Shown here: piece by piece, positions 12,445 to 59,849 of the stretch
Position numbering within the stretch: the first letter of the stretch is position 1
Layout: each line of letters opens with the position of its first letter
NCBI GenBank assembly: GCA_021324885.1
Contig: JAJPIF010000006.1
Coordinates: forward strand, 152,554 to 216,553
Direction: 5' to 3'
Length of the DNA stretch: 64,000 nucleotides
DNA from: Pseudomonadota bacterium
GTDB taxonomy: Bacteria > Desulfobacterota > Binatia > Binatales > Binataceae
Position numbers and translations under genes: made by a program
Notes under the pieces: generated by a model
Databases searched by the model: none
Told to the model about the DNA's origin: nothing
The model's input: the letters and a program-made list of their open reading frames with translations, nothing else

Positions 12445-12461
12445 TTGGCACGAGTTTCGCT
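12445..12461 (+). promoter_or_regulatory. Candidate sigma-54 promoter of the small secreted protein
   Basis: TTGGCACG-AGTT-TCGCT matches 12 of 13 defined positions of the sigma-54 consensus TTGGCACG-N4-TTGCW, with exact GG-N10-GC spacing. The -12 GC lies 46 nt upstream of the ATG at 12506. That predicts a leader of about 34 nt containing the strong GGAGG ribosome-binding site. Confidence 0.65.
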
Positions 12462-12505
12462 GCGTTGGGAAATAACTCAATTGGCCAAGAGGAAGGAGGT
12501 CAGAA

Positions 12506-12913
12506 ATGCGAAGATTCTTCTGTGTTCTCGCGGCGGGAACGATGGCGGTGGCGATGGCCGTCCCGGTTATCGCCCAGGCCGGTCCGGCCGATACCAATAG
12601 TCAGCCCATGCAGATGGCATCGGTAAAGTCCGGCAACGTGATTATCGAAGGAGGAGGAGGGTCCACCGCCGACCTCAACGTCGCGCGCTATAAGGCCTGG
12701 GACGAATTCCGCAGCAATCATCCGGAAATAGTTCGTGAAATACGGCGCAATCCAAGGCTCGTGGGCAGCCAGAGTTTCCTCCGCCGCCACCCTGCCCTGG
12801 CACGGCTGTTCGATTCCAACCCGGGTATGCAGCAGAGTATGATGCGGTATCCGGGTAATTACGTTGTCCCGGCGATGACGCATCGCTACCGGATGGCTAA
12901 AGCTACCCGGTGA
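12506..12913 (+). CDS. Small secreted protein of unknown function
   Basis: 135-aa protein with a clear Sec signal peptide: basic MRRFF, a hydrophobic core and a likely AQA cleavage site near residue 25. The mature part has a polar linker with four glycines, then a charged helical segment (KAWDEFRSNHPEIVREIR) with repeated 'NHPEIV / RHPALA / NPGMQQ' phrasing. I do not recognise a named domain. A strong AGGAAGGAGGT Shine-Dalgarno precedes the ATG, and an excellent sigma-54 -24/-12 site lies upstream. Both point to a genuinely expressed and regulated periplasmic or exported product. It is convergent with the enoyl-CoA hydratase, with a hairpin between them. Confidence 0.75.
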   Translation: MRRFFCVLAAGTMAVAMAVPVIAQAGPADTNSQPMQMASVKSGNVIIEGGGGSTADLNVARYKAWDEFRSNHPEIVREIRRNPRLVGSQSFLRRHPALARLFDSNPGMQQSMMRYPGNYVVPAMTHRYRMAKATR

Positions 12914-12929
12914 TCGCCACGCGTGAAAG

Positions 12930-12959
12930 GGGGTTCTACGCTCGCACGCAGAGCCCCCA
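12930..12959. terminator. Possible bidirectional hairpin between convergent genes
   Basis: An inverted repeat, GGGGGTTCT with AGAGCCCCC around a 12-nt loop, sits between two convergent genes. No U-tract follows on either strand, so intrinsic termination is only possible. Confidence 0.35.
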
Positions 12960-12987
12960 ATCCCAGATTCGCCGCTGCCAGCTTGCC

Positions 12988-13803
12988 TCATTTACCGGTG
13001 AATTTGGGCTGGCGCTTCTCGGCGAACGCCGCGGTGGCTTCCTTGTGATCCTGCGTATACATGGTCAGAGTTTCGTAGGCGAGCGCGGCGTCGTCGTTCA
13101 TTAGCGCCAGGTTCTTGATGGTCTTGTTGACCGCCAGCTTGGTCCAGCGGATAGCCCAGGTCGGGCCGTCGGCCAATTGTCGCGCAAGTTCTCGCGCCTT
13201 GGGCAGCACCTGATCCTTGGGTAGGGCGTAATTGACCAGGCCGATCTTGGCCGCTTCCGCCCCGCTGATGAAATTGCCGGTCATGAGGTATTCCTTGGCG
13301 CGTGAGGGGCCCACCAAAAGCGGCCACATGATCGCGCCGCCGTCGCCCGCCACCAATCCCACCTTGACGTGCGTATCCGCCAGCTTGGCGCTTTCGTCGC
13401 ACACCGTGATGTCGCACAGCAGCGCCAAACTGCATCCGAGGCCGACCGCCGCGCCGTTGATCGCCGCCACGATGGGCTGCTCGACGTCGAGCATGTTGTG
13501 GATGATGCGGCGCGCTTCGGTGGCGTTCATCGGAAACGGACCTTTGCGATGAGTCCGGCCGTCAGGACCCTCGTGACCGAAGCCTTTGACGTCGGCTCCG
13601 GCGCAAAACGCCTTGCCGGCCCCGGTCAACAGGATGGCATTGACTTCGGGATCTTCGGAGACGTCCACCCAGATCGTTTCCAGTTCGTGGTGCATCGTAG
13701 GAATGATGGCGTTAAGCGACTCGGGCCGGTTGAGGGTCAAGGTAATCAACCCGTGGTCCTTCTCGATCTTGATGTATTTGTAACCGCTGTAATCTACTGA
13801 CAT
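12988..13803 (-). CDS. Enoyl-CoA hydratase/isomerase family protein
   Basis: 271-aa crotonase-fold protein, expected to hydrate or isomerise an acyl-CoA in fatty-acid or aromatic side-chain degradation. The oxyanion-hole regions are visible as GAGKAFCAGADVKGFG and INGAAVGLGCSLALLCDI. The region that carries a catalytic Glu in classical hydratases reads GLVAGDGGAIMWP here, so the exact chemistry is open. The ORF track reaches 63 codons upstream. I use ATG 13803 because it follows an AGAGGAGGACCGTC Shine-Dalgarno and the family homology starts at once (MSVDYSGYKYI). The acyl-CoA dehydrogenases of the window may act in the same pathway. Confidence 0.92.
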   Translation of the reverse strand: MSVDYSGYKYIKIEKDHGLITLTLNRPESLNAIIPTMHHELETIWVDVSEDPEVNAILLTGAGKAFCAGADVKGFGHEGPDGRTHRKGPFPMNATEARRIIHNMLDVEQPIVAAINGAAVGLGCSLALLCDITVCDESAKLADTHVKVGLVAGDGGAIMWPLLVGPSRAKEYLMTGNFISGAEAAKIGLVNYALPKDQVLPKARELARQLADGPTWAIRWTKLAVNKTIKNLALMNDDAALAYETLTMYTQDHKEATAAFAEKRQPKFTGK

Positions 13804-14243
13804 GACGGTCCTCCTCTGGCTCCGGTTTATACCGCGTTTGCCGGTCTGGCGAAAATGCCGGCTCAACTGCGGGCCCGATCTGGTCTGGCTTGTTCGATTC
13901 TGATCTGGCTTGACCTGGAGGCAAATATTGCTATCTTTGACTCGCTTATCCAAGCCTCCCGGGGGGACGCGAATGAAAACTGGGGAAAACACGCGTTGGC
14001 AGCGTGTTCACGGCAGCCGTACTGTCTGGGCCGTCAGCGGAAACCCACGTTCGGCATGGCACGCTCGTCGCCAGTGGGGATCGGCGCCCATCCGATTTTG
14101 CGCCGCGGTGGCTTTAAGGCTGCGCTCGCCTTTATTGAGCTTTTTGCGCTTGCGGCTGGTACGCCGGGCGCACACGCGATCTCGCTAGCCCAAACCATCG
14201 CCATGATTACTTGAAGATAAACATAAGGGGGGATCCCACAACA
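13804..14243. other. Intergenic region, no supported gene
   Basis: This 440-nt gap separates divergent genes. Track ORFs here (119 and 92 aa) are Arg-rich with no domain. An ATG at 13972 has a G-rich upstream stretch but gives an implausible product. A perfect inverted repeat AACACGC-N7-GCGTGTT lies at 13988-14008 and could be an operator. Confidence 0.5.
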
Positions 14244-16214: not shown

Positions 16215-16332
16215 AGCGCCCCCGGGACCGGTAGCCGGCCCCTTGGCTGGCGGGACAAGGCCAGGCGGCGCGGCGTTTCGGCGGACGGTAGATCGTGTTA
16301 TACGACGCGAAAAGGCCGCAGGAGGCACCAAC

Positions 16333-16791
16333 ATGCGCGGAGTATCACACGTTGCTGTCGGCGTTGCCGATATGGAGAAGTCGCTGCACTTCTATCGCGA
16401 TCTGCTGGGACTGCGCGTCGTAATCGACGAAGTCCAGGACATCGGCGGGATCCAGGCGATGAAGGAGGGCACCGCGCGCCCGTCCCGCCGCGCCGTCCAT
16501 CTGGTATGGGACGATGAACCCTGGGCGACTTTTATCGTCCTGTCGCAGTTTCCCGGCGTGCAGTCCAATCCGCCGCCGAAACTGAACCAGGTCGGGATCA
16601 ACCATTTCGCCTTGTGGGTCGACGATCTCAGGGAGCGTGCGGCCAAGCTGGAGCAGGCCGGAGTAAAATTCCAGCTCAAGCCGTCCGAGGTTCCCGCGCC
16701 GACTTACGGCGGCGGCAAGACTCAGAAAGTTCTGACCTGTATCTTTGAAGATCCGGATGGAACGCTGATCCAGCTGGATCAGCAGCTTTGA
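16333..16791 (+). CDS. VOC (glyoxalase/dioxygenase-fold) family protein
   Basis: 152-aa vicinal-oxygen-chelate protein, one full set of paired beta-alpha-beta-beta-beta modules. It begins MRGVSHVAVGVADMEKSLHF, the usual first strand with a metal-ligand His, and ends ILEDP-like (CIFEDPDGTLIQLD), where the Glu is another ligand; INHFALWVDD lies between. Members include glyoxalases, extradiol dioxygenases and methylmalonyl-CoA epimerases; this one cannot be assigned further. ATG 16333 follows GCAGGAGGCACC. The next gene, an acyl-CoA dehydrogenase, starts 3 nt after its stop, so the pair is almost certainly co-translated, pointing to acyl-CoA metabolism. Confidence 0.88.
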   Translation: MRGVSHVAVGVADMEKSLHFYRDLLGLRVVIDEVQDIGGIQAMKEGTARPSRRAVHLVWDDEPWATFIVLSQFPGVQSNPPPKLNQVGINHFALWVDDLRERAAKLEQAGVKFQLKPSEVPAPTYGGGKTQKVLTCIFEDPDGTLIQLDQQL

Positions 16792-16794
16792 CGA

Positions 16795-17979: not shown

Positions 17980-18004
17980 GCTCTATAGCAATCCGCCGAA
18001 GGCC

Positions 18005-19183: not shown

Positions 19184-19467
19184 GAACTGACAGCGGACTT
19201 AAAGCCTTGACGCGGACTGGCGCCATCCATATCGTCAGGTTACGGATGCTTTGGTTGGCTGCGCGACGTTGGCCCGTTCAAGGCGGAGCGCGATGTGCGC
19301 AGCCGGCGTTCGGCCGAAATTGTAACGGCACGCCTGCGCCGTGCGCCTGTGCTCGCTGTTTCAACCCGACCACGCCGGGATTGAAGGACGGGCGCCTTTG
19401 ATTTGGGCGCGCTGGGCTCCCTTTGGACGGCGAGGTGGGCCGCTAACACGAAGAGGAGAGACGAAAA

Positions 19468-20046: not shown

Positions 20047-20065
20047 CGCCCGCGCCGGCGGGGCA

Positions 20066-20097
20066 GAAAAATGGGGCTGCGCGCCGGACAGCCCCAT
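20066..20097 (-). terminator. Intrinsic terminator of rpoD
   Basis: Perfect 9-bp inverted repeat ATGGGGCTG / CAGCCCCAT with a 9-nt loop. On the minus strand it is followed by TTTTTC, a good U-tract. It lies 24 nt beyond the rpoD stop, in the convergent gap with sodB. Confidence 0.7.
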
Positions 20098-20120
20098 CGT
20101 AATGCCCGGGCTGGGGAACG

Positions 20121-21860
<1,740 letters not shown>

Positions 21861-21955
21861 TCTGATTCCAGACATGCCGTGCTGATTGACCCCGCATCGT
21901 ACCTCGACCGGACTCAAGTGCAGTTTTCAACATGCAAAACGCCCAAGAACCCACG

Positions 21956-21985
21956 AGTGTAAGCCAGTGCGACGCGTGAAGTCAA
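21956..21985 (-). promoter_or_regulatory. Candidate sigma-70 promoter of rpoD
   Basis: TTGACT (-35) and TACACT (-10) separated by 18 nt on the minus strand, about 96 nt upstream of the rpoD ATG. This is five of six and four of six matches to the consensus, a moderate call. Confidence 0.4.
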
Positions 21986-45809: not shown

Positions 45810-46757
45810 CTAGGGACGGGGCAGTACCAGCACCTCAGAGCGCGCCATCTGCAGATTAAGCCGCGCAAGGTAAACTGGCAAACCGTTGGAATCTACGGCC
45901 ACATGCGTGGAGCCGTCGCATTGGCACCAGACGCTGAAGGCGTCGTTGATGCGGGCGAACTTCTCGGGCGCAATCGCTGATTGCTTCAGGTTGTCATCAG
46001 GGACCTTCAGTTCAAGCGTATGCCCTGTGATCGCGATCGCCGAAAGCATCGGCACCCCAGCCGCCGAGGTGTCGCGTCCGATCCAGCGCTTGAACGCCCG
46101 CTGGTTCATCATGTGCAAGCCGGGATAGTCCTCGTTCAGAACCACCAGAACATGACGGACGTGGCGTTTGCTGTGGCGCAGCGAAATCTGGTCGCGGCGG
46201 TCGACCGCGGTCCACAACTGCCGCTCCATCCGGGAAACATTGCCGGTGTCATCTGGAGCGACTCGCAAGTAAGTCTGCAACGCTGAGGAGGCCCGGCCGA
46301 TATCACCGTTGTGCAAGGCCTGTTGGAAACTCGCCGCTTCCTGACGCTTTAAATCGCTGTCGATTGCGGCCAACCGCGGGCCGCTCGAACTGCCCGGCTC
46401 CTGCACCGCTTGTTGGCAGGTCAGGTGCTGACGCCATAACGAATAGGTCGGCGGGCCGATTTGAACCTCGGTGCTGCAAAGGTCGTCCTTTGCCTCGCGA
46501 CGCTCTTGCGCATTCAACGAGGGATCCTGCAAGGCCGCTTCCAACTCCCGATGGGCCTGTGCATAATTGCCGGAGTCGATGCTGGTGCGGGCCGAGGACA
46601 GCATCGCGTTGGTGCACCCGCTCAACGTAGCTAACCAGAGCGAAGCGAGGACCTGCAGCCAGAATAGCAGCGGGTAGCGCTGGAGGGGCAGGTTGGCAAA
46701 CCGGGCCCCAGCCTCACCGATGCTTGCGACTGGCGCTGACCAGACGGTACCGTTCAT
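45810..46757 (-). CDS. Predicted lipoprotein with helical repeats, unknown function
   Basis: 315-aa protein with an unusually long n-region, then LFWLQVLASLWLATLSGC: a lipobox LSGC with Cys48. The mature part begins with a helical repeat resembling a TPR (SIDSGNYAQAHRELEAALQDP). A second half is mixed alpha/beta (HVRHVLVVLNEDYPGLHMMN and AIAITGHTLELKVPDDNLKQ) and ends DSNGLPVYLARL. No catalytic signature is recognised. ATG 46757 is the best start; the track ORF runs into the divergent methyltransferase. A possible weak sigma-54 site precedes it. Convergent with mscL. Confidence 0.6.
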   Translation of the reverse strand: MNGTVWSAPVASIGEAGARFANLPLQRYPLLFWLQVLASLWLATLSGCTNAMLSSARTSIDSGNYAQAHRELEAALQDPSLNAQERREAKDDLCSTEVQIGPPTYSLWRQHLTCQQAVQEPGSSSGPRLAAIDSDLKRQEAASFQQALHNGDIGRASSALQTYLRVAPDDTGNVSRMERQLWTAVDRRDQISLRHSKRHVRHVLVVLNEDYPGLHMMNQRAFKRWIGRDTSAAGVPMLSAIAITGHTLELKVPDDNLKQSAIAPEKFARINDAFSVWCQCDGSTHVAVDSNGLPVYLARLNLQMARSEVLVLPRP

Positions 46758-46809: not shown

Positions 46810-46896
46810 CAAAAACCGCAGCCATTTCCGTTAGAAAAAGCCCTAGCGCGCATGTAAAAACTACACCTTACAAAGGGCCGGCAGACTGGAAAATTA

Positions 46897-47649
46897 ATGG
46901 ACCCGGACAATCCCTACGCCCGCATCCGTGAAGCGACCGCCGCCGAGCGGGTAAAAATTTACGCTGAAATTTACGATTCCGGTCCGGCCGTTAGGAGCCC
47001 AGGGACAGACAAGGTTAGCGCACCTTCAGCGCGCCGGCGCCGGCGGCTGGCCCTTTACTCCAAAATCATCGGCGGAGGCCACCGCGCAATCGTGGAAATC
47101 GGCTGCGGCAGCGGCGATCTGACTTGTGCGCTGGCCGAACTGGCGCAACGCGTCGTCGGCATCGATATGGCCGGAGCGGTCCTGGGCCTGGCAAGGGAGC
47201 GCATCCGCCAGCTCCCGGCCAATCTGGCACAGCGGGTCCAATTGATCAAAATGAACGCGGTTAGCCTTGAGTTTGCCAAAGAGGTGTTCGACTGCGCCAT
47301 AAGCACTTCCATGATCGAGCATCTGCACCCCGACGACGTCGATACCCATCTGCGTGAAACCTGGCGCGTCCTCAAACCGGGGGGCCGCTACCTGGTCTGG
47401 TGCCCCAACCGCCTCGGCCACCATAAGGATCGCCCGGACCATCTCAGTATGATGTCATACGCCGAATTGGTGGACCGGATGCGTCGCGCGCGTTTTGTGG
47501 ATTTTGTCTCGCCGTTATTTACCGGGCCACCGATGGTTGATACGCGGCTCAAGATATGCTGGGAACAGGCTCTCAGCCGCGCCCATATCGGCGTGTTCTG
47601 GAGCCATCTCGGAATCAGGAACATGCTTGTCGTCGCGCGCAAACCGTAA
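46897..47649 (+). CDS. Class I SAM-dependent methyltransferase
   Basis: 250-aa cytosolic methyltransferase with the Rossmann-like SAM fold. Motif I is VEIGCGSGDLTCALAELAQ near residue 66, motif II carries the acidic residue in VVGIDMAGAV, and CAISTSMIEHLHPDDVD and TWRVLKPGGRYLVWCPN are motifs IV-V. The fold is that of the UbiE/ubiquinone and sugar- or lipid-modifying families; the target is unknown. An N-terminal extension (NPYARIREATAAERVKI) precedes the core. The start ATG at 46897 is in a divergent gap with the lipoprotein gene. Convergent with a small hypothetical gene 12 nt beyond its stop. Confidence 0.88.
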   Translation: MDPDNPYARIREATAAERVKIYAEIYDSGPAVRSPGTDKVSAPSARRRRRLALYSKIIGGGHRAIVEIGCGSGDLTCALAELAQRVVGIDMAGAVLGLARERIRQLPANLAQRVQLIKMNAVSLEFAKEVFDCAISTSMIEHLHPDDVDTHLRETWRVLKPGGRYLVWCPNRLGHHKDRPDHLSMMSYAELVDRMRRARFVDFVSPLFTGPPMVDTRLKICWEQALSRAHIGVFWSHLGIRNMLVVARKP

Positions 47650-47661
47650 GTCGCGCCAGCT

Positions 47662-47979
47662 TCATTTTTCAGCAAGAAGGCTTCGCAGCATCTTGCGCAG
47701 ACGCGGCGTGGATTTCAAGGCGGCAGCGAGTTCGTCAAGATCAGCCTGATCGACAATCAGCGGCGAGCGCTGAAACCTGCCTCGATGGTCATAGTAGCAG
47801 AAGCGGACCTGGCTGGCGCCTGCCGCCGGGCCTGTGCGGAAATCCAGCAGCTGAATAGCGGGACAATGGTAGGGACCGCTGGTTCGGACCTCCTCCGCGA
47901 TAACTCCGGAGCCCCAATGCACAGAGAATGTTCGGAGTTTCGCCGGAGAATGCCTGTTGCTTCTTAAACGTTGGCGCAT
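47662..47979 (-). CDS. Conserved-looking hypothetical protein
   Basis: 105-aa ORF without a recognised domain. The last ~75 residues have coding character: YHCPAIQLLDFRTG, then ASQVRFCYYDHRGRFQRSPL and a helical end (QADLDELAAALKSTPRLRKM). The C-terminal ADLDELAAAL helix and beta-like VRFCYYDH pattern suggest a small alpha+beta protein. The start at ATG 47979 is a guess; the longer track ORF to 48117 has an unlikely composition. Convergent with the methyltransferase. Moderate confidence that it is a real gene. Confidence 0.5.
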   Translation of the reverse strand: MRQRLRSNRHSPAKLRTFSVHWGSGVIAEEVRTSGPYHCPAIQLLDFRTGPAAGASQVRFCYYDHRGRFQRSPLIVDQADLDELAAALKSTPRLRKMLRSLLAEK

Positions 47980-48151
47980 GCCTGAGCATTTTCTCGCGCC
48001 GATTCGATTTGCAACCGATCCCGTGGTCGAGACTGGACGGGTTCCGGCCGGGGCGAATTTCCAAGCACCCATGGCTGTATCCGAACGGGCCGAGGTGATG
48101 CCTTTTTGGAGCCACACGAAACGGGGGTAGGTTGGCGGTCAGCGAAATATG

Positions 48152-48167
48152 AGCCCAAAGCTGGGCT
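48152..48167. promoter_or_regulatory. Inverted repeat upstream of the sigma-54 activator promoter
   Basis: AGCCCA-AAGC-TGGGCT is a perfect 6-bp inverted repeat. It is centred about 41 nt upstream of the -24 element of the activator promoter and could be an activator site. No matching motif was found upstream of the other sigma-54 promoters. Confidence 0.3.
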
Positions 48168-48198
48168 GTATGGCAGGAAGACGGCGGGAATTGAAAAA

Positions 48199-48215
48199 TC
48201 GGCTCGGAATTTGCT
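48199..48215 (+). promoter_or_regulatory. Candidate sigma-54 promoter of the activator gene
   Basis: TCGGCTCG-GAAT-TTGCT matches 11 of 13 positions of TTGGCACG-N4-TTGCW with GG-N10-GC spacing. The -12 GC lies 56 nt upstream of the ATG at 48270, implying a leader of about 44 nt and possible autoregulation. Confidence 0.6.
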
Positions 48216-48269
48216 TCACCAAAGCGCAGCTCCGGGAAAGCAGAGAAAGCCGAGTGGAATGCCATCTCG

Positions 48270-49772
<1,503 letters not shown>

Positions 49773-49841: not shown

Positions 49842-50570
49842 ATGGTCGAGCAAATGCGAGAGGAAATCGTCCACCAAGTACGTGCCGCCCTGGAACACGA
49901 GCCGCGCCTTAACCTCCATCGTTTTCCACTCCTTATCCGCCAGGCCTCGGACGGAACCGTGGTGCTGCAAGGCGAAACTCAAAGCGTCGCGGCCAAAAAA
50001 CTGGCCCTCGAGGTAGCCGCCGCGACGCCCGGCGTAGCCGACATTATTGACCGATTACATGTCGCTCCGGCGCGCCACATGGGCGACGGCGAGATCCGCG
50101 ACCATGTGCGTGACGCCCTGCTGCAGGAGCCCGTCTTTCAAAACCATATAATCCGCACCGCCTCGGGCGGCCGCGACAAGAATGCGCCCTCGCCGGGGCT
50201 ATCCCGTTATATAGAGATTGCTGTCGAGGAGGGCGTCGTCGCCCTTGACGGGCAGGTCGGTAGCTTGTCCCACAAGTCCCTGGCGGGGACGTTGGCCTGG
50301 TGGGTACCCGGAACCCGCGACGTGATCAATGCGATTGACATTGTGCCGCCGCAGCAGATCAACGACGCCGAGATCAATGATGCCGTGATGCTCATTCTGG
50401 AGAAGGACCCATGGGTAAACACGAGCCGAATCCGCGTGCTTACCCGCAATCGCATAGTCGTTTTGGAGGGTTATGTGAGCAGTTCGGATGAACGGGAGAT
50501 GGCTGATATGGATGCATGGTGCGCTTTCGGCGTCGACCTGGTAATGAACCGTCTGGAAGTCCAACCGTAA
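49842..50570 (+). CDS. Triple BON-domain protein
   Basis: 242-aa protein made of three BON domains in tandem: residues ~1-70, ~80-165 and ~172-240, each with the pattern DGTVVLQGETQSVAAKKLA or GVVALDGQVGSLSHKSLAG or NRIVVLEGYVSSSDERE. No signal peptide is visible at the chosen start (MVEQMREEIV), which follows GTGGAGAATTAC, so the protein is probably cytosolic; OsmY-like relatives are periplasmic. BON domains bind phospholipids and are linked to osmotic or envelope stress. It is 69 nt downstream of the activator and probably shares its transcript. Confidence 0.85.
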   Translation: MVEQMREEIVHQVRAALEHEPRLNLHRFPLLIRQASDGTVVLQGETQSVAAKKLALEVAAATPGVADIIDRLHVAPARHMGDGEIRDHVRDALLQEPVFQNHIIRTASGGRDKNAPSPGLSRYIEIAVEEGVVALDGQVGSLSHKSLAGTLAWWVPGTRDVINAIDIVPPQQINDAEINDAVMLILEKDPWVNTSRIRVLTRNRIVVLEGYVSSSDEREMADMDAWCAFGVDLVMNRLEVQP

Positions 50571-50809
50571 CACATCTAGGGATGCATATTATATCTAAAT
50601 TTGCTATATTTATTTATTCATGCCAGCGATAACCGGCGGTTGTTACGCGGTTGCGTGGCGCACAATCGTACGCGCATCCAGCACAGCCAATCTAAGCACG
50701 TGATTAGGAATTAAAGCTCCGACCTATTTGCCACGCCAGAATATCGGTGTACCCTCATAATATAGCCCTCCGATGTGAGTCCAAACGGAAGGTGTTTAGG
50801 GAAAATACG

Positions 50810-51049
50810 ATGCGATACGAAAGGAGTAGCCCAAAGGGCGGCCGGACCGTCGAAGGAGCGGCGGGCGGCGCAAATGAAATCTGGACTGTGTCGATGCTGG
50901 CACGGTATCTGCGGTGCCATCCCAGCACCATTTATCGCTTGCTGAAACGTGGCCAAATACCTGCATTCAAAATCGGCAGCGACTGGCGCTTTCAGAAGTC
51001 AGTAATTGATCGCTGGCTGAAAAAATCGACCATCGATTCTCTCGCAGGC
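50810..51049 (+). CDS. Excisionase-like helix-turn-helix protein
   Basis: 79-aa small DNA-binding protein of the excisionase/MerR-like HTH_17 type. The domain is WTVSMLARYLRCHPSTIYRL, followed by LLKRGQIPAFKIGSDWRF and SVIDRWLKK. A basic N-terminal tail (MRYERSSPKGGRT) precedes it. ATG 50810 is preferred (upstream GGGAAAATACG); the ORF track extends 21 codons more. In such proteins the partner is often an integrase or a restriction system, but neither lies here. It stands alone between two gene-poor stretches of relatively AT-rich DNA. Confidence 0.75.
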
Positions 51050-51052
51050 TAA

Positions 51053-51327: not shown

Positions 51328-51579
51328 CTATTTATTGTTGATGCGTGGCCTCAAATACCTGACAAAGTCCTCTATTGTCAGAATCTTGGGGTAGTCGGCT
51401 TCGGGAATCTCGACGCCCGTGGCATCATGGATAGCAACCATCAAGTCCAGGACGTTCATTGAATCGAGATCGACCTGATCACGTAAATTGATTGTGGAAT
51501 CGATTTGCGCAGGGTCGATCTCGGGTGCAATGTTGCATAGCTCGCGCAATACCAACTCTCTGATCTCGCTGTCGGTCAT
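51328..51579 (-). CDS. Acyl carrier protein
   Basis: 83-aa acidic carrier protein. The phosphopantetheine attachment motif is DLDSMNVLDL with Ser40, and helix III sequence IEDFVRYLRPRI closes the fold. The ATG at 51579 overlaps the stop of the E2 gene by 4 nt (ATGA), and CCGGAGAAG gives a Shine-Dalgarno. The track ORF starts 46 codons earlier within the E2 gene and is not credible. Unlike the standard AcpP, it lies in a 2-oxoacid dehydrogenase operon, suggesting a specialised role such as acyl-chain handling for lipoylation or a dedicated acyl pool. Confidence 0.92.
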   Translation of the reverse strand: MTDSEIRELVLRELCNIAPEIDPAQIDSTINLRDQVDLDSMNVLDLMVAIHDATGVEIPEADYPKILTIEDFVRYLRPRINNK

Positions 51580-52856
51580 AACTTCTCCGGGTTCTGCAGC
51601 AGGCGGTCCAAAGCTGCGAGGAACAAACCACCACGATGGCCGTCGCTGGCGCGATGGTCGCCCGAAAGCGAGGCCATGATTATTGGCCGCGCGCCGATCA
51701 TGCCACCTTCCGCCCACGGTCGCTCAACGATCTTGCCGAAACCGACCAGTGCGACTTGCGGCGGATAAATCACCCCGAAGACGCTCTCGATTCCCTGCTC
51801 GCCGAGGCTCGTCACGGTGATAGTGGCGTCGGCGATTTCGGAACTGCGCAGCACTCCGGCCCGCACGCGCTTAACCAGGCCGCGCAGGCTGACCATAATT
51901 TCGCTCAGACTCTTTTTGTCCGCGTCATGAATGGCAGGAGCGACGAGACCGCCCAGGCGCAGCGAAATTGCCACACCCACGTGTATCCCATCGCCGGGCT
52001 TGAAAGCGCCGTCCACCCAGAACCCATTAAGTTCAGGAAACTCGCGCAAAGTCAGGGCCACTGACTTGAGCAGCATCGCCGAGTAAAGCAGACGGTCATT
52101 GATACTGCGCCTGAGATTTTCCTCCCGCAGCCATGCGATCGCGCGGCTCATGTCGATTTGCGTGCCGAGATAATAATGCGGGATTTCACGCTTGGAGCGC
52201 GCCATCGCCGCCGCGATCGCCCGGCGCATCGCCGCTTGCTTGTCTGCCGCCATCATCGCGGGGCGAATCTCTTTGGCTGCAGGCGTGGGAGTCGGCGATG
52301 GCGTTGCGATGGGAGGAGGAGGCGGTGGCGCCGCAGCGGCTTTGCCCTTGGCGGCCGCTTCCACATCGAATCGGGTGATGGCGCCGCCCGGACCCGTTCC
52401 TTTGACCGTGGCCGGATCGATGCCAAGTTCCAACGCCACGCGCATCGCCAATGGCGAGATGCGCAGATGAGCGGTAGCTGCGGCGGACGCTGGTTTTGCG
52501 GCGGGCGCGGCAGGCGGAGCCGCCGGCGCAGGCGCCGTCGGCAATGCGGCAGCCGGACGCAGCGAAGATGGGGCAGGAACGACAGGCACAGGCTCACGCA
52601 CGGGCGGCGCCGGAGTCTCGCCGTCTGTTGCGATCAGCGCCAGGGTGGCGCCGACTGGAACTTTATCGCCCTCCTGCACCGCAAAGCTTTGCACGGTACC
52701 ACTTTGGAACACCTCGATTTCGATCGCGCCTTTTTCCGTCTCAACGACGGCGATGATATCGCCACGATTGATGCGGTCGCCGGGCTTGACCAGCCACTGT
52801 ACCAGCGTGCCCGTTTCGATATCAGCGCCCAGCGATGGCATCCTGAACTCAATCAC
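51576..52856 (-). CDS. 2-oxoacid dehydrogenase E2 (dihydrolipoamide acyltransferase)
   Basis: 426-aa core of the 2-oxoacid dehydrogenase complex, which moves the acyl group from E1 to CoA. An N-terminal lipoyl domain has the lipoylated lysine in [12 protein letters not shown] (Lys42). An Ala/Pro-rich linker ([14 protein letters not shown]) leads to the E1/E3-binding domain [16 protein letters not shown]. The catalytic domain carries [12 protein letters not shown] near the C-terminus (His401, Asp405). The GTG at 52856 overlaps the end of the E1-beta gene by 8 nt and is preferred over the downstream ATG. The ACP gene overlaps its stop. Confidence 0.94.
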
Positions 52857-53862
52857 GTTTGCCCACCAGTGCGCGCGCGGTCTCGACAATCACCGACACC
52901 TGGGGAAGCGCCGCTTCCTCCAGGTGCTTGGGATAAGGCATGGGCGCTTCGGCGCTGCACACACGCTGCACCGGCGCGTCGAGCTCGTAGAATGTGCCTT
53001 CCATGATTCGGGCGCTGATTTCGGCCGAAATGCTGCCGCTGCGCCATCCTTCATCGATGATCACCGCGCGATGGGTCCGCGTGACGGAATCGACAATGGC
53101 GTCGTTGTCGAGCGGGCGCAGCGTGCGCAGGTCCAGCACTTCGGCGTCGATCCCGGCGGCGGCAAGCTCCAGCGCCGCCTGCATCGCTTTGCCCAGGGTG
53201 CCGCCGTAGGTGATCAGGCTCAAGTCGGAGCCGGGGCGCCGGATCGCGGCGTGTTCGATATCGACCGCGCCGGCGTCGGCGGCAAGTTCCCCCTCCATGT
53301 TGTAAAGGCTGCCGTGCTCGAAAATAAGGACCGGATCGGGATCCTCAAGGGCCGTCCACAGCATCCCGCGAGCATCCTCGAGCGTGGCTGGAGCAAGCAC
53401 CTTGATACCGGGGATATGCGCATACCAGCCCTCCAGCGAATGCGAATGCTGCGCAGCCAATTGCCGTCCGGCGCCGGTGGTCATACGGATCACCAACGGG
53501 ATATTGAACTGACCGCCAGACATGTGAAGTATGGTCGCAGCGTTATTCACGATCTGATCAAGCGCCAGCAGGCTGAAGTTGACCGTCATGATTTCCACGA
53601 TCGGACGCATCCCACCCATCGCCGCGCCGATACCGGCGCCGACGAAGGCCGATTCGGAAAGCGGAGTGTCGCGAATGCGTTCGGGGCCGAACTCCTCCAG
53701 CAGTCCCTTGCTGACTGCGAAACATCCGCCATAACGCCCGACGTCCTCGCCCATCAAAAAGACGCGTGGATCGCGGATCAGCGCGTCCCGTATCGCCTCG
53801 CGCATCGCTTCCCGATAGGTCGTGTGGATCGTTTGAGGCCTGGTTTGTTCTTGGGCACTCAT
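52849..53862 (-). CDS. 2-oxoacid dehydrogenase E1 beta subunit
   Basis: 337-aa beta chain of the E1 heterotetramer. Family phrases are [20 protein letters not shown] near the N-terminus, [19 protein letters not shown] and [16 protein letters not shown]. It helps bind thiamine diphosphate with the alpha subunit. The ATG at 53862 overlaps the E1-alpha stop by 4 nt (ATGA) and follows CCGAAAGGACGCGAAC. The E2 start overlaps its end. With E1-alpha and E2 it forms most of a pyruvate- or branched-chain-type complex; E3 (lpd) is not in this cluster. Confidence 0.95.
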
Positions 53863-54866
53863 GTTCGCGTCCTTTCGGAATAGACGAAACGCGTCAGGTC
53901 CTCTACCGGTTCCCACGTTCCCGCTTCGGCAAAATCAACCGCTTTCTGTACTTCGGCGGCAACCCCATCCTCGATTCGCTTGAGCCGGTCGTCGTCCAGG
54001 AGTCCGGATTCGCGCAGACGGCCGTCGTAAATCAAAATTGGGTCGCGCTTTTTCCATTCGTCAATTTCCTGTTTGGTGCGATAGAGTTGGGGATCGAACA
54101 TCGAATGCGCCCGGAAGCGATAGGTGCGGAACTCCAGGAACACCGGACCACCCCCGCCGCGCACCTCGGCCGCCGCGCGGCGCGCGGCATCTTCGCAGGC
54201 CTCGACATCCATTCCGTCAACGGGCCAGGCGGGAATTTCGTAACTGGAAGCCTTAAGGCACAGATCGGTTTCGGATTCGGAACGCCCCAACGCCGTGCCC
54301 ATCGCGTAGAGATTGTTTTCGCAGAAAAAAAGCACTGGCAGTTTCCATAATGCGGACAGATTGAGACATTCGTGAAACTCACCTTCCGCCACCGCGCCTT
54401 CGCCAAAAAAGCAGGCGGTGACGCGCGGACGCCTGGCTAATCTGTCAGCCAACGCCAGGCCCACCGCGAGTGGCAGACCACCGCCCACGATCGCGTTGCC
54501 ACCATAAAAGCGCGTGGCCGCGTCGAACAGATGCATTGAACCACCGCGCCCGCGGCTGCATCCTTCCTGCTTGCCGTACAATTCCGCCATCACTGCGGGG
54601 GCAGGAACGCCGCGTACCAGCGCGTGCCCGTGTTCGCGATAGGTCGCAACCACCGCGTCGTCGGGCGCGAGCGCCTGCATGGCGCCGGCGGCAATCGCTT
54701 CCTCTCCGATGTACAGGTGCACAAAGCCGTGAATCTTGCCGGCGCGATAGAGTTCCGCGCACTTCTCCTCGAAGCGCCTGATCAGCACCATTTGTCGAAA
54801 CAAATCGAGGGCGTGTTCCCTTTGCGGTTGCGCCTGCGCGGCGGTGATGGATGTAATCGCAGTCAT
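53859..54866 (-). CDS. 2-oxoacid dehydrogenase E1 alpha subunit
   Basis: 335-aa thiamine-diphosphate-dependent dehydrogenase alpha chain that decarboxylates pyruvate or a related 2-oxoacid. The ThDP/Mg motif reads [18 protein letters not shown] with [11 protein letters not shown]; the first Asp of the usual GDG is Glu, a variant seen in the subfamily with the NLYAMGTAL phrase. The substrate loop [18 protein letters not shown] precedes it. It overlaps the acyl-CoA synthetase gene upstream by 4 nt and E1-beta downstream by 4 nt. This is strong evidence for one polycistronic, translationally coupled unit. Confidence 0.95.
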
Positions 54867-56620
54867 TGGCTCTCCAGCGTAGAGAGGTCGCCCTCAGCCA
54901 GTCCAAGTTCACGTGCCTTGAGCAGACGCCGCATGATTTTGCCACTTCGGGTTTTGGGCACATTGGCGACGCAATCGATCTCGCGCGGCGCCACCACCGC
55001 CCCCAGGCGCTGGCGCGCGAAGCCAAGCAGTTCCCGGCGCAACTTGTCGTTCCAGGTGTAAGCGGGCTTGAGTGAAACGAACGCTTTGACCACCTCGCCG
55101 GCAACCGGATCGGGTTTTCCGATCACGCCCGCTTCGGCCACCGCCGGATGTTCCAACAACAGGCTTTCGACTTCGAACGGCCCAATCAAATGACCGGAGG
55201 ATTTGATCACGTCATCGGCGCGGCCGACGAACCAGAAGTAGCCGTCCGCATCGCGCCGCGCCAGGTCGCCTGTCAGATACCATCCGCCGATAAAACACTT
55301 GCGATAGCGCTCCTCATCGTTCAGATAGCCGCGGAACATCGAGGGCCATCCGGGACGAAGCGCGAGTTCTCCCTCGACTCCAGGCTGGGTCACCTCCTCG
55401 ACCGCATTGTCGCCGACGCGGCGCACGATACCCGCCTCGATGCCAGGGAGCGGGCGGCCCATTGAACCTGGGCGGATGTCCAGCGCGAGATAGTTGGCAA
55501 TCATGATGCCGCCAGTCTCGGTCTGCCACCAGTTATCGTGGATGGGAAGCCCGAACGCCTTCTGGCCCCAAACCACGCCTTCAGGGTTGAGCGGTTCGCC
55601 AACGCTCGCGATCAGGCGCAGGCTGCTGAAGTCATACTTGCGAATCACATCAGTTCCAACCTTCATCATCATTCGAACCGCGGTCGGTGCGGTATACCAA
55701 ACGCTTACCCTCTGTTCCTGGACGATTCGGTACCATTGCTCGGCGTCGAAATCAGCCTCATTAACGATGCTGGTGATGCCGTGAGTCAGGGGCGCGATGA
55801 TGCCGTACGAAGTGCCGGTGACCCAGCCGGGATCGGCAGTGCACCAGAAAATGTCGCCGGGATGGAAATCGAGGGCGATGCGGCCGGTCATATAGTGGGC
55901 GACCACCGCCTCGTGGACATGCATCGCACCTTTGGGGGTCCCAGTGGTCCCACTGGTGAAATGCAGCAGGGCCAAATCTTCGGGCTGGGTCGACGCAATC
56001 GCGAAGTCCTCGCCTGCTTGAGCCATTAATAGGCGGAAATCATGAGTGCCGGCTATGGCGTTGATTTCGCCGGGTTCGCCGATCAGCAGAATATGCTTCA
56101 ATCCCGGTAGCGACGCGCAAACTTCCGCCACTTTGCGCTTGAACAACGCTGCGGTGGTGACGAGCACGCGGCCATCGGCCAGGCTGATGCGCTGGCGAAT
56201 CGGCTCGGGGCCGAATGCCGAAAAAAGAGGGCAGAAGACATGACCGCCCTTAAGCGCGCCGAGCGCACTGATGTAGAGTTCCGGAATTCTGCCCGCGAGC
56301 AGAAAAACGCGCTCGCCGCGGGCGAGGCCAAGTTTTTTCAGCACATTGGCGAAACGATTGGTCTGTTTGGCTAACTCACCGTAGGTGAAGTCGCGTGTTT
56401 CGCCGCTGCGCCCAAGCCATCGCAACGCCAGGTGGTCGCGCCGCGATCCGAGCGCGTGACGATCGACGGCTTCATAGGCAATATTCAGACGCCCGTCAGG
56501 CAGTCCGTCCAGCGCACGGCGCGCTTCCTCCCAGGAAAACGTCTCCCGGGTCTTTTCATAATCGAGCAGGTTGGGCGCCAACGTCCATGCGCGCGGCTTC
56601 TCTATCGTCTTCCAGGCCAT
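54863..56620 (-). CDS. Acetyl-CoA synthetase-like acyl-CoA ligase
   Basis: 585-aa AMP-forming ligase of the AcsA/acetyl-CoA synthetase type. P-loop-like motif [19 protein letters not shown] lies near residue 223, the adenylate-binding [13 protein letters not shown] and [11 protein letters not shown] follow, and the C-terminal lysine motif [16 protein letters not shown] is in the lid domain. It activates acetate or a short acyl group. It is first in the overlapping synthetase-E1alpha-E1beta-E2-ACP operon and follows the HPF-cold-shock gene by 34 nt, with GCTGGAGACCAA as Shine-Dalgarno. The link to 2-oxoacid dehydrogenase suggests control of acyl-CoA supply. Confidence 0.95.
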
Positions 56621-56654
56621 TTGGTCTCCAGCTCAAAATCGCCGCGAGTTGGGG

Positions 56655-57191
56655 TCAGTGCCTGCGTTCAGCGACGGTTACGGTGCTCGCTTGCGGTCCT
56701 TCGTCGCCTTCCTCTTCGACGAAGCGGACCTGGGTCCCGATTTGAAGTCTGTCGAAACCGCCATTCAACACGCTGTTGCGATGAAAATAGATTTCGCGGC
56801 CGTCCGCGGTCTCGAGAAAGCCGTAATCAGCCGACAGCCTGGACACGCGACCTTGCGCTGGCGCCTCGTGTGCTTTGACGTCGCCGCGATGCTCGCGGAC
56901 ATAATCTTCCAATTGGCGCCTCATCGCGTCGAAGGCCTCGCGGATGGCCGCGGCCAGGCCCTCCTCGGATTGCCGGTTCACGATCAGTTCCTTGCCCGGA
57001 ACGGTCAGTCGGACATGTACCTTGAACGGACCGCCTTTGCGATGATGCTCGACCGGAGCTTCGACGGTCACATCGCAGCCCGTGATTCTGGTGAAATAGG
57101 TGTCCAGTGACGCGGCCTTTTCCCGTATTTCGGCCTCGAAGGCCTCAGACAGGGCGAAGTCACGAGCGGTAATATTCAGTGCACGTTGCAT
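56655..57191 (-). CDS. Ribosome hibernation promoting factor fused to a cold-shock domain
   Basis: 178-aa fusion. Residues 1-~105 match the HPF/RaiA N-terminal domain (MQRALNITARDFALSEAFEA, KVHVRLTVPGKELIVNRQSE and LEDYVREHRGDV), which binds 30S subunits to make idle ribosomes. Residues ~118-175 form a cold-shock (CspA-like) OB fold: GRVSRLSADYGFLETADGR, then EIYFHRNSVLNGGFD. ATG 57191 follows GGCAGGAGAAAGC; the track ORF begins 27 codons earlier. A sigma-54-like promoter lies upstream. HPF-CSD fusions are known, but the start of a metabolic operon right behind it is unusual. Confidence 0.9.
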   Translation of the reverse strand: MQRALNITARDFALSEAFEAEIREKAASLDTYFTRITGCDVTVEAPVEHHRKGGPFKVHVRLTVPGKELIVNRQSEEGLAAAIREAFDAMRRQLEDYVREHRGDVKAHEAPAQGRVSRLSADYGFLETADGREIYFHRNSVLNGGFDRLQIGTQVRFVEEEGDEGPQASTVTVAERRH

Positions 57192-57243
57192 GCGTAAGCT
57201 TTCTCCTGCCAATTCCCTTTTTCCTCCCCCGCAGTCTGACAGT

Positions 57244-57260
57244 AGCAATTGACGTGCCCT
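57244..57260 (-). promoter_or_regulatory. Candidate sigma-54 promoter of the HPF-cold-shock gene
   Basis: AGGGCACG-TCAA-TTGCT on the minus strand: GGCACG and TTGCT are perfect, with GG-N10-GC spacing (11 of 13 positions). The -12 GC is 54 nt upstream of the ATG at 57191, leaving a leader of about 42 nt. Transcription could continue into the synthetase-dehydrogenase operon. Confidence 0.62.
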
Positions 57261-57390
57261 CTGAATTCGCATCGCAGCCAGCCTGGCGCGGCCAAACGGC
57301 GGCGTATCATGCTACCGAAGGATTCAGCAGGCTGATCCCGTCGGCACCAGAAGCATGGAGGTGAGGAGAAAGTGGGCCGCGGGGATGCGA

Positions 57391-58122
57391 TTACAGTCTG
57401 GTGATAACATCGGCCGGCGTGTAGCCGATGCTTACGGCCAGCAACACGGCGGCGGCGGCGAGCTGCAGCGCGTCGCTTTGCGCTTGGATCAGTGCGCGCA
57501 GGGCGATGATGTGGCAGGCAGGCGAGCGGATCCCGTTTTCAGCCAGGCCGGACCACGGATCGGAATCGAAGATGGCGTCGATGAGCGGATTGCAGTCAAA
57601 GCCGGATTCCGCCAGCGCTTCGCGGATGGCGACGCGGCGGAATTCGGCCGGTTCGGTTCTTTCGAAATCAACCAGTCGCGCAATACGCTTGCGCATCAAT
57701 GGGAGCAGCCGGGCATAGTTTGCGACCGCACTCAAATATGGCGTGGCCTCCTGCTGATCGAGAAAATCCCCCACCGTACCTTCCTCAGCATAGACTCCGA
57801 TCGAACCGAACGCGGGTTCCAGCCTGATGAATCTTTCGGTGCCGGCCGTGCTTTCGATCCCGAGCGGATAGAGGCGGCACGGCAATGGCCTGCCCGAATG
57901 GATGCTGCAAAACCCGTTGCGCAGAAAGACGCAGGAGCCGTCGTGGCTGAACCGCAGGAGGGAGCCGCGCCTTAAGCTATAGCGAGAGATCAGCTCGGCT
58001 GTTCCCAGACCGGTCACCGACGCCATCCGCATCACGTCATACGGCGAAAGCGTGATGACCTTGTCGCGACAGCACAATCCACAGCATCCACAGCGGTAGG
58101 AAAACGCGCTCGATCGATCCAT
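57391..58122 (-). CDS. YkgJ-family cysteine cluster protein
   Basis: 243-aa protein with the YkgJ (CxxCxxxxC-type) cluster: CGCCGLCCRDKV near residue 11, CVFLRNGFCSIHSGRPLPC near residue 64 and RLYPLGIES. Such proteins likely bind zinc or an Fe-S cluster; the family is annotated as 'zinc/iron-chelating', with no confirmed role. The remainder is helical, with a Leu/Ala-rich C-terminus. The start ATG is at the beginning of the cluster region. Stand-alone gene in a divergent position to the acyl-CoA dehydrogenase and 199 nt from the HPF gene. Confidence 0.9.
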   Translation of the reverse strand: MDRSSAFSYRCGCCGLCCRDKVITLSPYDVMRMASVTGLGTAELISRYSLRRGSLLRFSHDGSCVFLRNGFCSIHSGRPLPCRLYPLGIESTAGTERFIRLEPAFGSIGVYAEEGTVGDFLDQQEATPYLSAVANYARLLPLMRKRIARLVDFERTEPAEFRRVAIREALAESGFDCNPLIDAIFDSDPWSGLAENGIRSPACHIIALRALIQAQSDALQLAAAAVLLAVSIGYTPADVITRL

Positions 58123-58246
58123 TGATAAGGGTCACAGCCTCGGCTTTAACATAGCATGCGGCGTGCGGACTTCATTTCCACGCCGCTTCGTGCAACAAAG
58201 GTACTGAGCCAGTGAGCGACGGCGAATTCACAAGGAGCGCACGGTA

Positions 58247-59431
58247 ATGGACTTCGGCTACACGCCCGAACAGGAAGCCTTTCGCAACGAGGTGAGGTCC
58301 TGGCTGGAGGCCAATCAGCCGCCGCCGCTCACGCGCGAGGAGAAGGAAAATCTCACCGACGATTTGCTGTGGGAGCGCGGCAAGGCCTGGCACGCCAAAT
58401 TGTATGAAGGTGGATGGGCGGGGATAAGCTGGCCCAGGAAATACGGGGGGCGCGGCGCCAGCTTTATCGAGCAGGTGATCTTCGGGCAGGAACTCGCCCG
58501 CCTCGGCCTGCCGCCCGGGATCAACTTGCTGGGTATCATCATGACCGGTCCCGCCCTCATGCAATGGGGCACCGAGGAGCAGAAGGTGCGCTACCTCAGC
58601 AAGATCCTCAAGGCGGAGGAAATCTGGTGCGAGGGCATGTCGGAGCCGGGCGCCGGATCGGATCTGGCGGCTATACAAACACGCGCCGACCTTCAGGGCG
58701 ACACTTTTATCGTCAATGGGCAGAAGATCTGGACCACGCACGCCCACCGGGCGCACTTCTGCCAGCTCTTCGTGCGAACCGATTTCCAGGCACCCAAACA
58801 TAAGGGACTCAGCGCTCTGCTGGTGGACATGAAGTCGCCGGGCGTCACCGTGCGCCCTTTGCGCCAGATTACGGGTGAAGCGGAATTCAACGAGATCTTT
58901 TTCGAGGATGTGCGTGTGCCGCGGGAAAACCTGCTGGGACCGCTCAATGGCGGATGGCAGGTGCTGGTTTCCACCCTGATGCATGAGCGGTTCGGAATCG
59001 GCGAAACATTGGGCGCAAGCCAGCAAACGTTGACTGAACTGGTGGAACTGGCCAGGGCGATGGAGATTAATGGACGGCCGGCGGCTGAAGATTCCGCAAT
59101 CCGCCAGCAACTTGCCCAGTTCGCAATCGAGGCGGCCGCCAAGAAGTACAACGGCCTGCGCAGCCTGACCAGCCGGCTCAAAGGTCTGCCGCCGGGGCCC
59201 GAAGCTTCAATCAGCAAACTGGTCTCGACCGAACTGGCCCAGCGGATGGTGAAATTTGCCACGAACCTGTTGGGCCATTATGCGCTCCTCGATCCTCGCA
59301 GCCCGCTTGCGCCCTCAGGTGCATGGCTGCTGCGAATCCTCGGATGCGAGTCCCTCACGATCGCCGGCGGCACCACGGCGGTGCAGAAGAACATGATCGG
59401 CGAGCGCGTGCTGCAACTGCCCAAGGGGTGA
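58247..59431 (+). CDS. Acyl-CoA dehydrogenase
   Basis: 394-aa FAD-dependent dehydrogenase similar to the pair at 16.8-19.2 kb. Features: DFGYTPEQEAFRNEVRSWLE at the start, the flavin motif MSEPGAGSDLAAIQTRADLQ near residue 134, IVNGQKIWTTHAHRAHF and the C-terminal IAGGTTAVQKNMIGERVLQL. The Glu normally preceding GT is Gly, as in the other two. A CAAGGAGCGCACGGTA Shine-Dalgarno precedes the ATG. It is monocistronic as far as the sequence shows: a 454-nt gap follows before hsp20. The substrate is unknown. Confidence 0.93.
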   Translation: MDFGYTPEQEAFRNEVRSWLEANQPPPLTREEKENLTDDLLWERGKAWHAKLYEGGWAGISWPRKYGGRGASFIEQVIFGQELARLGLPPGINLLGIIMTGPALMQWGTEEQKVRYLSKILKAEEIWCEGMSEPGAGSDLAAIQTRADLQGDTFIVNGQKIWTTHAHRAHFCQLFVRTDFQAPKHKGLSALLVDMKSPGVTVRPLRQITGEAEFNEIFFEDVRVPRENLLGPLNGGWQVLVSTLMHERFGIGETLGASQQTLTELVELARAMEINGRPAAEDSAIRQQLAQFAIEAAAKKYNGLRSLTSRLKGLPPGPEASISKLVSTELAQRMVKFATNLLGHYALLDPRSPLAPSGAWLLRILGCESLTIAGGTTAVQKNMIGERVLQLPKG

Positions 59432-59832
59432 GGACAATTCTTCCTGCTTGCATGAAGGCTCCCTTGCCGTGTCATGAATGCCCGCAGGAGAAGCCAGGCG
59501 AGGGAACCTTGAACATCGCGTAATTTTTCCAGCGGCGCAGTAAAAAAGTTCCTGACCTGGTGCCAAAAAGGGCGCGTCTGACTCTGAGCATCTCCCGCCC
59601 CGCGTTGAAAAAAGCGCCGACGGCCTGTGGGGTGCGGAACTTTGCTCCGGGGCTGCCGCTCTCTGACTCTGTAAAGAATAGCTGGCGACATGCACCCGGG
59701 TGCGCATCTTCATGGCAAAGCCGTCGAACCTGCATCTTCCGGAAACATATCGAATCACAAATTTTTGATTCCGGCGGAGTCAGTGGTTATCAAGAATTTA
59801 AGGGGCCCTTCCGCCCCTGGTGGATTGGGCCG
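59432..59832. other. Intergenic region upstream of hsp20
   Basis: No supported ORF; two track ORFs are shadows of unusual composition. It contains the perfect palindrome GCACCCGGGTGC at 59692-59703, and the hsp20 promoter lies at its end. No ncRNA signature was recognised. Confidence 0.45.
59692..59703. promoter_or_regulatory. Perfect palindrome upstream of the hsp20 promoter
   Basis: GCACCCGGGTGC is a 12-bp perfect palindrome centred about 135 nt upstream of the -24 element. This is a typical distance for a bEBP enhancer site, but no copy was found at the other candidate promoters. Confidence 0.3.
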
Positions 59833-59849
59833 TTGGCAAGGCATGTGCA
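59833..59849 (+). promoter_or_regulatory. Candidate sigma-54 promoter of hsp20
   Basis: TTGGCAAG-GCAT-GTGCA matches 11 of 13 positions of TTGGCACG-N4-TTGCW with GG-N10-GC spacing. The -12 GC lies 38 nt before the ATG at 59886, with the CAGGAGG Shine-Dalgarno in the leader. Confidence 0.6.

What the first reader, a model, noticed from the sequence alone, without database searches (positions are those of the whole stretch)
12445..59849. A putative sigma-54 stress regulon in one window
Four close matches to the sigma-54 promoter consensus TTGGCACG-N4-TTGCW (11-12 of 13 positions), each with the strict GG-N10-GC spacing, precede genes at 12506, 48270, 57191 (minus) and 59886. All are correctly oriented and 38-56 nt from the start codon. 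By rough chance estimate an 11/13 match should be rare in intergenic DNA. The genes are a sigma-54 activator, Hsp20, a hibernation-factor/cold-shock fusion and a small secreted protein. Together they suggest an envelope or stationary-phase stress programme controlled by an activator with an unusual sensor domain.
Basis: partly seen in the sequence, partly recalled or inferred. Interest (0 to 1): 0.72.

Follow-up and report, generated by a model that had tools for sequence, protein, structure and literature searches.

The report
Sigma-54 stress promoters, globin-fold activator
A soil bacterium of the little-studied Binatia group appears to switch on a small heat-shock protein and a ribosome-parking protein through sigma-54 promoters, probably driven by a family of activators that carry a globin-shaped sensor; such a one-protein version of a low-oxygen switch does not appear in the papers searched.

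Summary
The four sites are real and more than chance. With a sigma-54 matrix, 5 of 53 window genes carry a correctly oriented site (>=12 bits), against 0.2 in shuffles and 1 of 350 in a random sample of the same genome (p=2e-4). Boxes before the secreted-protein gene and the HPF/cold-shock gene are conserved in relatives; the Hsp20 box also is, slightly displaced.

It is not shown to be one regulon. Unbiased motif search across relatives found a palindromic enhancer, TGTATCC-N3-GGATACA, upstream of sigma-54 promoters next to orthologues of this activator (USP, CBS-domain, Hsp20 genes). In the window only Hsp20 (two copies, one conserved across the genus) and HPF (weaker) have it. The secreted-protein and activator genes do not, and the activator's own box is poorly conserved.

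The activator's sensor is a globin-fold domain (model pLDDT 91), apparently without the canonical haem histidine. Relatives sit beside terminal oxidases, hemerythrins, USP and CBS genes, resembling the oxygen-linked Nmp pathway of Myxococcus condensed into one protein. Best reading: a low-oxygen or energy-limitation survival programme. "Envelope stress" is unsupported. Binding, signal and transcription are inferred.

The parts
12445..12461 (+). sigma-54 -24/-12 box TTGGCACGAGTTTCGCT, 17.0 bits, before secreted-protein gene
   Evidence: same place in G001 and G002 (-62, CTGGCATGAGATTCGCT) and in G003, G010 with diverged flanks
12506..12913 (+). small secreted protein (135 aa), no Pfam family
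   Evidence: homologues in 32 of 57 genomes
   Evidence: similar boxes before the orthologues in G001 and G002
45810..46757 (-). gene downstream of the fifth box, no Pfam family, lipoprotein-like N-terminus
48199..48215 (+). weak sigma-54-like box TCGGCTCGGAATTTGCT, 12.6 bits, before the activator; doubtful
   Evidence: present in G002 (-95), absent in G001 and nearly all other relatives; no enhancer motif
48270..49772 (+). sigma-54 activator: globin-fold N-domain (about 17-175), AAA+ (187-350, loop GAFSGA), Fis-type HTH (457-497, recognition helix SRKKLYATIDKYGL)
   Evidence: Pfam; fold; HTH comparison
49842..50570 (+). three BON domains; follows the activator here and in G001, not in G002
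56655..57191 (-). ribosome hibernation factor (S30AE) fused to cold-shock domain, 178 aa
   Evidence: start codon supported by homologues aligning from residue 1
57244..57260 (-). sigma-54 box AGGGCACGTCAATTGCT, 13.6 bits, before HPF gene
   Evidence: G002 GGGGCACGCCGATTGCT at -79; boxes also in G010, G011, G021, G028, G034 and one same-class genome
57310..57326 (-). candidate enhancer TGAATCCTTCGGTAGCA (2 mismatches to TGWNTCC-N3-GGANWCA)
   Evidence: P=0.008 in shuffles; 4 of 346 random genes do as well
57333..57349 (-). second, weaker enhancer-like site TGGTGCCGACGGGATCA (3 mismatches)
   Evidence: G002 has TGATTCCAAAGGAGCCA upstream of its HPF box
59731..59747 (+). distal enhancer TGCATCTTCCGGAAACA (2 mismatches)
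   Evidence: aligns with TGCTTCCTTTTGAAGCA (G001) and TGCGCCCTTTGGAAGCA (G002)
59766..59782 (+). proximal enhancer TGATTCCGGCGGAGTCA (0 mismatches), 50 nt before the -24 box
   Evidence: upstream of Hsp20 also in G001 and G002, where it is the only exact TGANTCC-N3-GGANTCA in the genome
59833..59849 (+). sigma-54 box TTGGCAAGGCATGTGCA, 14.1 bits, before Hsp20
   Evidence: G001 TTGGCACGTTTAGCGCT (-69), G002 CTGGCACGTTTTGCGCT (-73)
59886..60347 (+). Hsp20 small heat-shock protein, 153 aa

Best explanation
The window holds several genuine sigma-54 promoters. The core that belongs together is Hsp20 and the HPF/cold-shock gene: each has a -24/-12 box and, 49-85 nt upstream, palindromic enhancers with the core TCC-N3-GGA. 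They are most likely activated by a member of the globin-fold sigma-54 activator family, i.e. the window's own activator (48270-49772) or its 73% identical paralogue at contig C10. The proposed mechanism: the globin-fold domain senses low oxygen, redox state or a related signal and frees the AAA+ ring; Fis-type helices hold it on the paired palindromes; the ring remodels RNA polymerase-sigma-54; the products (Hsp20, HPF, elsewhere USP, CBS-domain and oxidase proteins) preserve protein and park ribosomes during energy limitation. The secreted-protein gene and gene 45810-46757 have sigma-54 boxes but probably another activator. Shown: boxes, their enrichment and conservation, the enhancer motif and its association with this activator family, the predicted globin fold. 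Inferred: binding, which paralogue acts, the signal, transcription.
For: Oriented sites 5 of 53 genes against 1 of 350 in a genome sample. Footprints in relatives. Loci around activator-family genes (USP, CBS and REC neighbours included): 44 of 506 genes with a >=13-bit site, reversed matrix 0. Enumeration of all 6-base half-sites and spacers over 62 promoters put TGTATC-N5-GATACA first: 14 promoters against 0.08 in shuffles, z 15.7, where the highest z in a shuffled set was 4.2. Enhancer-like sites are more frequent in genomes with the activator: 2.25 against 0.72 per genome, p=0.0008; within the family p=0.015. Window Hsp20 has 0- and 2-mismatch enhancers, HPF a 2-mismatch one; in G010 HPF and Hsp20 lie in tandem behind a 17.2-bit box. 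Globin fold: pLDDT 90.8; top structures cytoglobin, AfGcHK and BpeGReg sensor globins, target TM-scores up to about 0.7, prob 1.00; weak Protoglobin hits in 6 of 18 members. Oxygen context: COX operon directly upstream of the activator in G001 and G002; cbb3 genes (P-type ATPase, CcoN-FixO) divergent from the homologue in Myxococcales with a 16.8-bit box; hemerythrin neighbours.
Against: No expression or binding data. Foldseek E-values are only about 0.02, so fold identity rests on probability and TM-score. The position of the proximal haem histidine of sensor globins aligns to leucine here, so an oxygen signal through ordinary haem ligation is doubtful. In this genus the strict TGTATCC form is nearly absent (0-1 per genome), so the link to the variant TGAYTCC-N3-GGAGTCA rests on the shared core and on the neighbourhood argument. 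The activator is not on the same contig as Hsp20 or HPF in G001 and G002. The Hsp20 box is shifted about 20 nt against its congeners and has weak -12 elements (GTGCA, GCGCT). Other activators exist in the genome (17 homologous AAA+ hits). Labels activator-present/absent were assigned by me from the hit table.
Confidence: 0.58

Rival explanations
1. One regulon: all four genes, the activator included, are controlled by the window's activator in an envelope or stationary-phase stress programme.
For: All four boxes are oriented and the window is enriched; HPF is a classic stationary-phase function.
Against: No enhancer motif upstream of the secreted-protein or activator gene; activator box absent in G001 and most relatives; secreted-protein promoter has another inverted repeat (around 12382); nothing envelope-specific among targets in relatives.
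Confidence: 0.12
2. Genuine sigma-54 promoters served by several unrelated activators; Hsp20 and HPF are switched by a different NtrC-type protein and the globin-fold activator controls only genes beside its own orthologues.
For: 17 AAA+ homologues in the genome; the window enhancer is a variant of the family motif; no sigma-54 site >=12.5 bits lies upstream of a called gene in the 20 kb around the activator in G001 and G002.
Against: The same TCC-N3-GGA architecture; an Hsp20 gene near the activator orthologue in G019 carries TGTATCCATCGGATACG plus a box; enhancer counts follow presence of the activator across genomes.
Confidence: 0.25
3. The boxes are chance matches in a GC-rich genome.
For: Raw whole-genome counts equal the reversed control.
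Against: Oriented upstream enrichment, footprints and paired enhancers.
Confidence: 0.05

Closest known systems
NmpRSTU / NmpR regulon of Myxococcus xanthus (PMC11841059, PMC6211767)
   Same: Sigma-54 NtrC-type activator with Fis-type HTH, paired palindromic enhancers; targets CBS-domain protein, USP, P-type ATPase and cbb3 oxidase; a globin sensor heads the pathway, and AfGcHK, homologue of NmpU, is among the best structural matches of the sensor here.
   Different: There the globin is in a histidine kinase and the activator is a phosphorylated response regulator; here the globin-fold domain is fused to the activator. Enhancer differs (GCGCA-N5-TGCGC against TGTATCC-N3-GGATACA). Hsp20 and HPF are not in the published Nmp target list that was read.
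DosR dormancy regulon of Mycobacterium (from general knowledge)
   Same: Same kinds of output: Hsp20, USPs, CBS-domain protein, hibernation.
   Different: DosR is a NarL-type regulator without sigma-54, fed by haem GAF kinases; no relation by sequence.
RsbR sensor globins of stressosomes (7o0i; PMC4976288)
   Same: Best sequence-profile match of the sensor domain (E=0.0038); haem and non-haem versions known; oxygen control in Vibrio.
   Different: Output there is a STAS domain in a stressosome, not an AAA+ sigma-54 activator.
NorR and other one-component sigma-54 activators with N-terminal sensors
   Same: Sensor-AAA+-HTH layout; NorR senses NO directly.
   Different: NorR senses through a GAF domain, not a globin fold.

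Membership tests
bacterial enhancer-binding protein (sigma-54 activator) | AAA+ sigma-54 interaction domain with Walker motifs and GAFTGA loop | tested here: met
   Pfam PF00158 E=1.6e-63; sequence shows GESGTGKE, FLDE and GAFSGA, a conservative variant
bacterial enhancer-binding protein (sigma-54 activator) | C-terminal Fis-type HTH | tested here: met
   PF02954 E=3.4e-9
sigma-54 promoter | GG and GC elements 10 bases apart, oriented, near the start codon | tested here: met
sigma-54 promoter | rpoN in the genome | tested here: met
   one Sigma54_DBD match, E=2.3e-62
sigma-54 promoter | transcript start downstream of the -12 element, dependent on rpoN | not testable with these tools
   no expression data
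globin-coupled sensor | globin fold of the sensor domain | tested here: met
   model pLDDT 90.8; sensor globins among top matches, prob 1.00, target TM-scores up to about 0.7, but E about 0.02
globin-coupled sensor (haem) | proximal histidine in the F helix | tested here: not met
   aligned position is Leu (L100, nearly invariant) in the profile alignment to 7o0i; other conserved His (54, 115, 144) exist
globin-coupled sensor (haem) | haem binding | not testable with these tools
   needs purified protein
Nmp-type oxygen regulon | response-regulator receiver phosphorylated by a globin kinase | tested here: not met
   no receiver domain in the activator; sensor is fused
Nmp-type oxygen regulon | CBS, USP and high-affinity oxidase targets | tested here: met
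   in relatives, not in the window itself

The most novel reading that the evidence does not exclude
A family of one-component, globin-fold sigma-54 activators in Binatia, with members in Myxococcales and Latescibacterota MAGs, directly couples oxygen or redox sensing, possibly without classical haem ligation, to a dormancy-type programme (USP, CBS, Hsp20, HPF, terminal oxidases) through a TGTATCC-N3-GGATACA enhancer. In the window's genus a duplicated paralogue with a changed recognition helix (YAKI to YATI) may have acquired a variant enhancer, TGACTCC-N3-GGAGTCA.
Probability: 0.4. Interest if true: 0.75.

Novelty: new variant of a known kind. Interest (0 to 1): 0.56.

Why it matters
If true, it is a minimal, single-protein counterpart of a multi-component oxygen circuit and a new route by which uncultured soil bacteria enter a protected, low-activity state. 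It gives a defined enhancer, an activator and a target list that can be tested in a laboratory host, and a natural case of a paralogue pair whose DNA specificity may have split.

Tried and rejected
Whole-window and whole-genome counts of consensus matches: not informative, equal to controls. First palindrome search with raw counts and 5-base half-sites was swamped by GC-rich words; z-scores solved it. The reversed-pattern control for the TGA...TCA enhancer is low partly because it contains CTNAG words, so I do not rely on it; many 1-mismatch enhancer hits in the genome lie inside genes. A shared GCATGTARAAA word upstream of the secreted-protein gene and gene 45810-46757 was derived from the two sites themselves and stays a lead. 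The Pfam name 'Sigma 54 modulation protein' for HPF is historical and is not evidence. Early alignments with unoriented loci were discarded and redone.
Full report
What was checked. Counting matches anywhere in the window or genome shows nothing: 5 strict matches against 2.35 in shuffled windows, and 37 genome hits against 39 for the reversed pattern. The informative measure is oriented sites upstream of genes. With an approximate sigma-54 matrix of my own and a simple gene caller, 5 of 53 window genes have a site of 12 bits or more; shuffles give 0.21, and the minus-strand and reversed controls give 0. A random sample of 400 kb of the same genome gives 1 of 350 genes, as many as its controls; the difference to the window is significant (p=1.8e-4). 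The sample also shows that such promoters are rare in this genome, so the window is a real cluster, with the caveat that it was singled out because a reader saw the sites.

Conservation. The organism belongs to a family whose named relatives are Candidatus Binatia/Binataceae MAGs, several from soil and groundwater. The secreted-protein box sits at -61 or -62 in all three species of the genus and at -60 to -68 in two other genera, while the flanks have diverged. The HPF box is kept in G002 and, at different distances, in G010, G011, G021, G028 and others. The Hsp20 box is present in both congeners but about 20 nt further from the start. The activator's own box is found in G002 only. Gene 45810-46757 keeps a weak box in both congeners. 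Loci of up to 20 kb around activator-family genes hold many strong sites: 44 of 506 genes, reversed matrix 0. These stand before a USP-CBS fusion, CBS-domain proteins, receiver-domain proteins, an NADH-dehydrogenase-like reductase and Hsp20.

Enhancer. Enumerating all palindromic 6-mers with spacers 0-11 over the 220 nt upstream of 62 such promoters gave one clear winner, TGTATC-N5-GATACA (14 promoters, 0.08 expected, z 15.7), i.e. TGTATCC-N3-GGATACA. It lies mostly 50-160 nt upstream of the -24 element. Genomes with the activator have more such sites (2.25 against 0.72, p=0.0008), and sites with a promoter downstream precede, among others, Hsp20, a protein that looks like cytochrome oxidase subunit II and one that looks like a pyruvate:ferredoxin oxidoreductase subunit (the last two by eye). 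In the window, Hsp20 has an exact match to the degenerate form TGWNTCC-N3-GGANWCA (TGATTCCGGCGGAGTCA) and a second one at 2 mismatches; no random gene of 346 has a match within 1 mismatch. HPF has one at 2 mismatches (P=0.008). The secreted-protein and activator promoters have none. In G001 and G002 the only exact TGANTCC-N3-GGANTCA in the genome is the one before Hsp20. The recognition helix reads SRKKLYAKI in most family members but SRKKLYATI in the window's activator and its two orthologues; that this explains the variant enhancer is a guess.

Sensor. The N-terminal domain has no Pfam match in the window protein, weak Protoglobin matches in 6 of 18 homologues and a weak profile match to the globin part of a stressosome RsbR. 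AlphaFold2 gives a confident helical model (pLDDT 90.8) whose best solved matches are globins, among them the sensor globins AfGcHK and BpeGReg. The usual proximal histidine is a leucine, so the domain may be a non-haem globin like the Bacillus RsbR domains described in PMC4976288, or may bind a ligand in another way.

Function. In G001 and G002 the activator follows a COX2-COX1-COX3-COX4 operon; in G002 that operon has a box and two enhancer-like sites (TGTTTCCAAAGGGGGCA and TGTATCCTTCGGGGGCA, by eye). In Myxococcales MAGs the homologue is divergent from a P-type ATPase and a cbb3-type oxidase with a 16.8-bit box and is followed by a hemerythrin; a hemerythrin also precedes it in a Latescibacterota MAG. 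The published Nmp pathway of M. xanthus has the same logic spread over several proteins: a protoglobin kinase, an NtrC-type activator, and CBS, USP, P-type ATPase, cbb3, HemN and hemerythrin targets (PMC11841059). I therefore read the system as a low-oxygen or energy-limitation survival programme rather than envelope stress. No paper found in the library describes a globin domain fused to a sigma-54 activator, but the library is incomplete.

Limits. Gene calls, the matrix and the thresholds are mine. Which of the two paralogues acts at Hsp20 and HPF, and whether either does, is not shown. All statements on binding and signal are inference.

Noticed in passing
window 47649-48270; L063, L064: In G001 a COX2-1-3-4 operon lies between the methyltransferase gene and the activator (in G002 it also directly precedes the activator); in the window these two genes are neighbours and the operon is absent there. 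The genome keeps other COX1 homologues (best 53% identity).
   Followed up: partly
window 51328-57191 (minus): The HPF gene is followed after about 35 nt by an AMP-dependent acyl-CoA ligase, then genes that look like dehydrogenase E1 alpha, E1 beta, lipoyl E2 and an acyl carrier protein, all on the same strand: the sigma-54 promoter could drive a long operon.
   Followed up: no
window 12382-12392 and 46850-46860: GCATGTARAAA occurs exactly twice, upstream of the secreted-protein gene and of gene 45810-46757, both with sigma-54 boxes; possible site of a second activator. The word was derived from these two places.
   Followed up: partly
window 50747-51052: Small ORF with an excisionase-like HTH, 101 aa, in an otherwise gene-poor 1 kb after the BON gene; a 14-bit sigma-54-like site lies inside it.
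   Followed up: no
L023, G000 C20:240553: Strong sigma-54 box (18.4 bits) before a short Flp-type pilin-like ORF in the same genome.
   Followed up: no
G000 C20:218836 (L211): Own-genome USP gene with enhancer TGTGTCCGTTGGGAACA and box TTGGCATGCTGCTTGCC; a likely further member of the regulon.
   Followed up: partly
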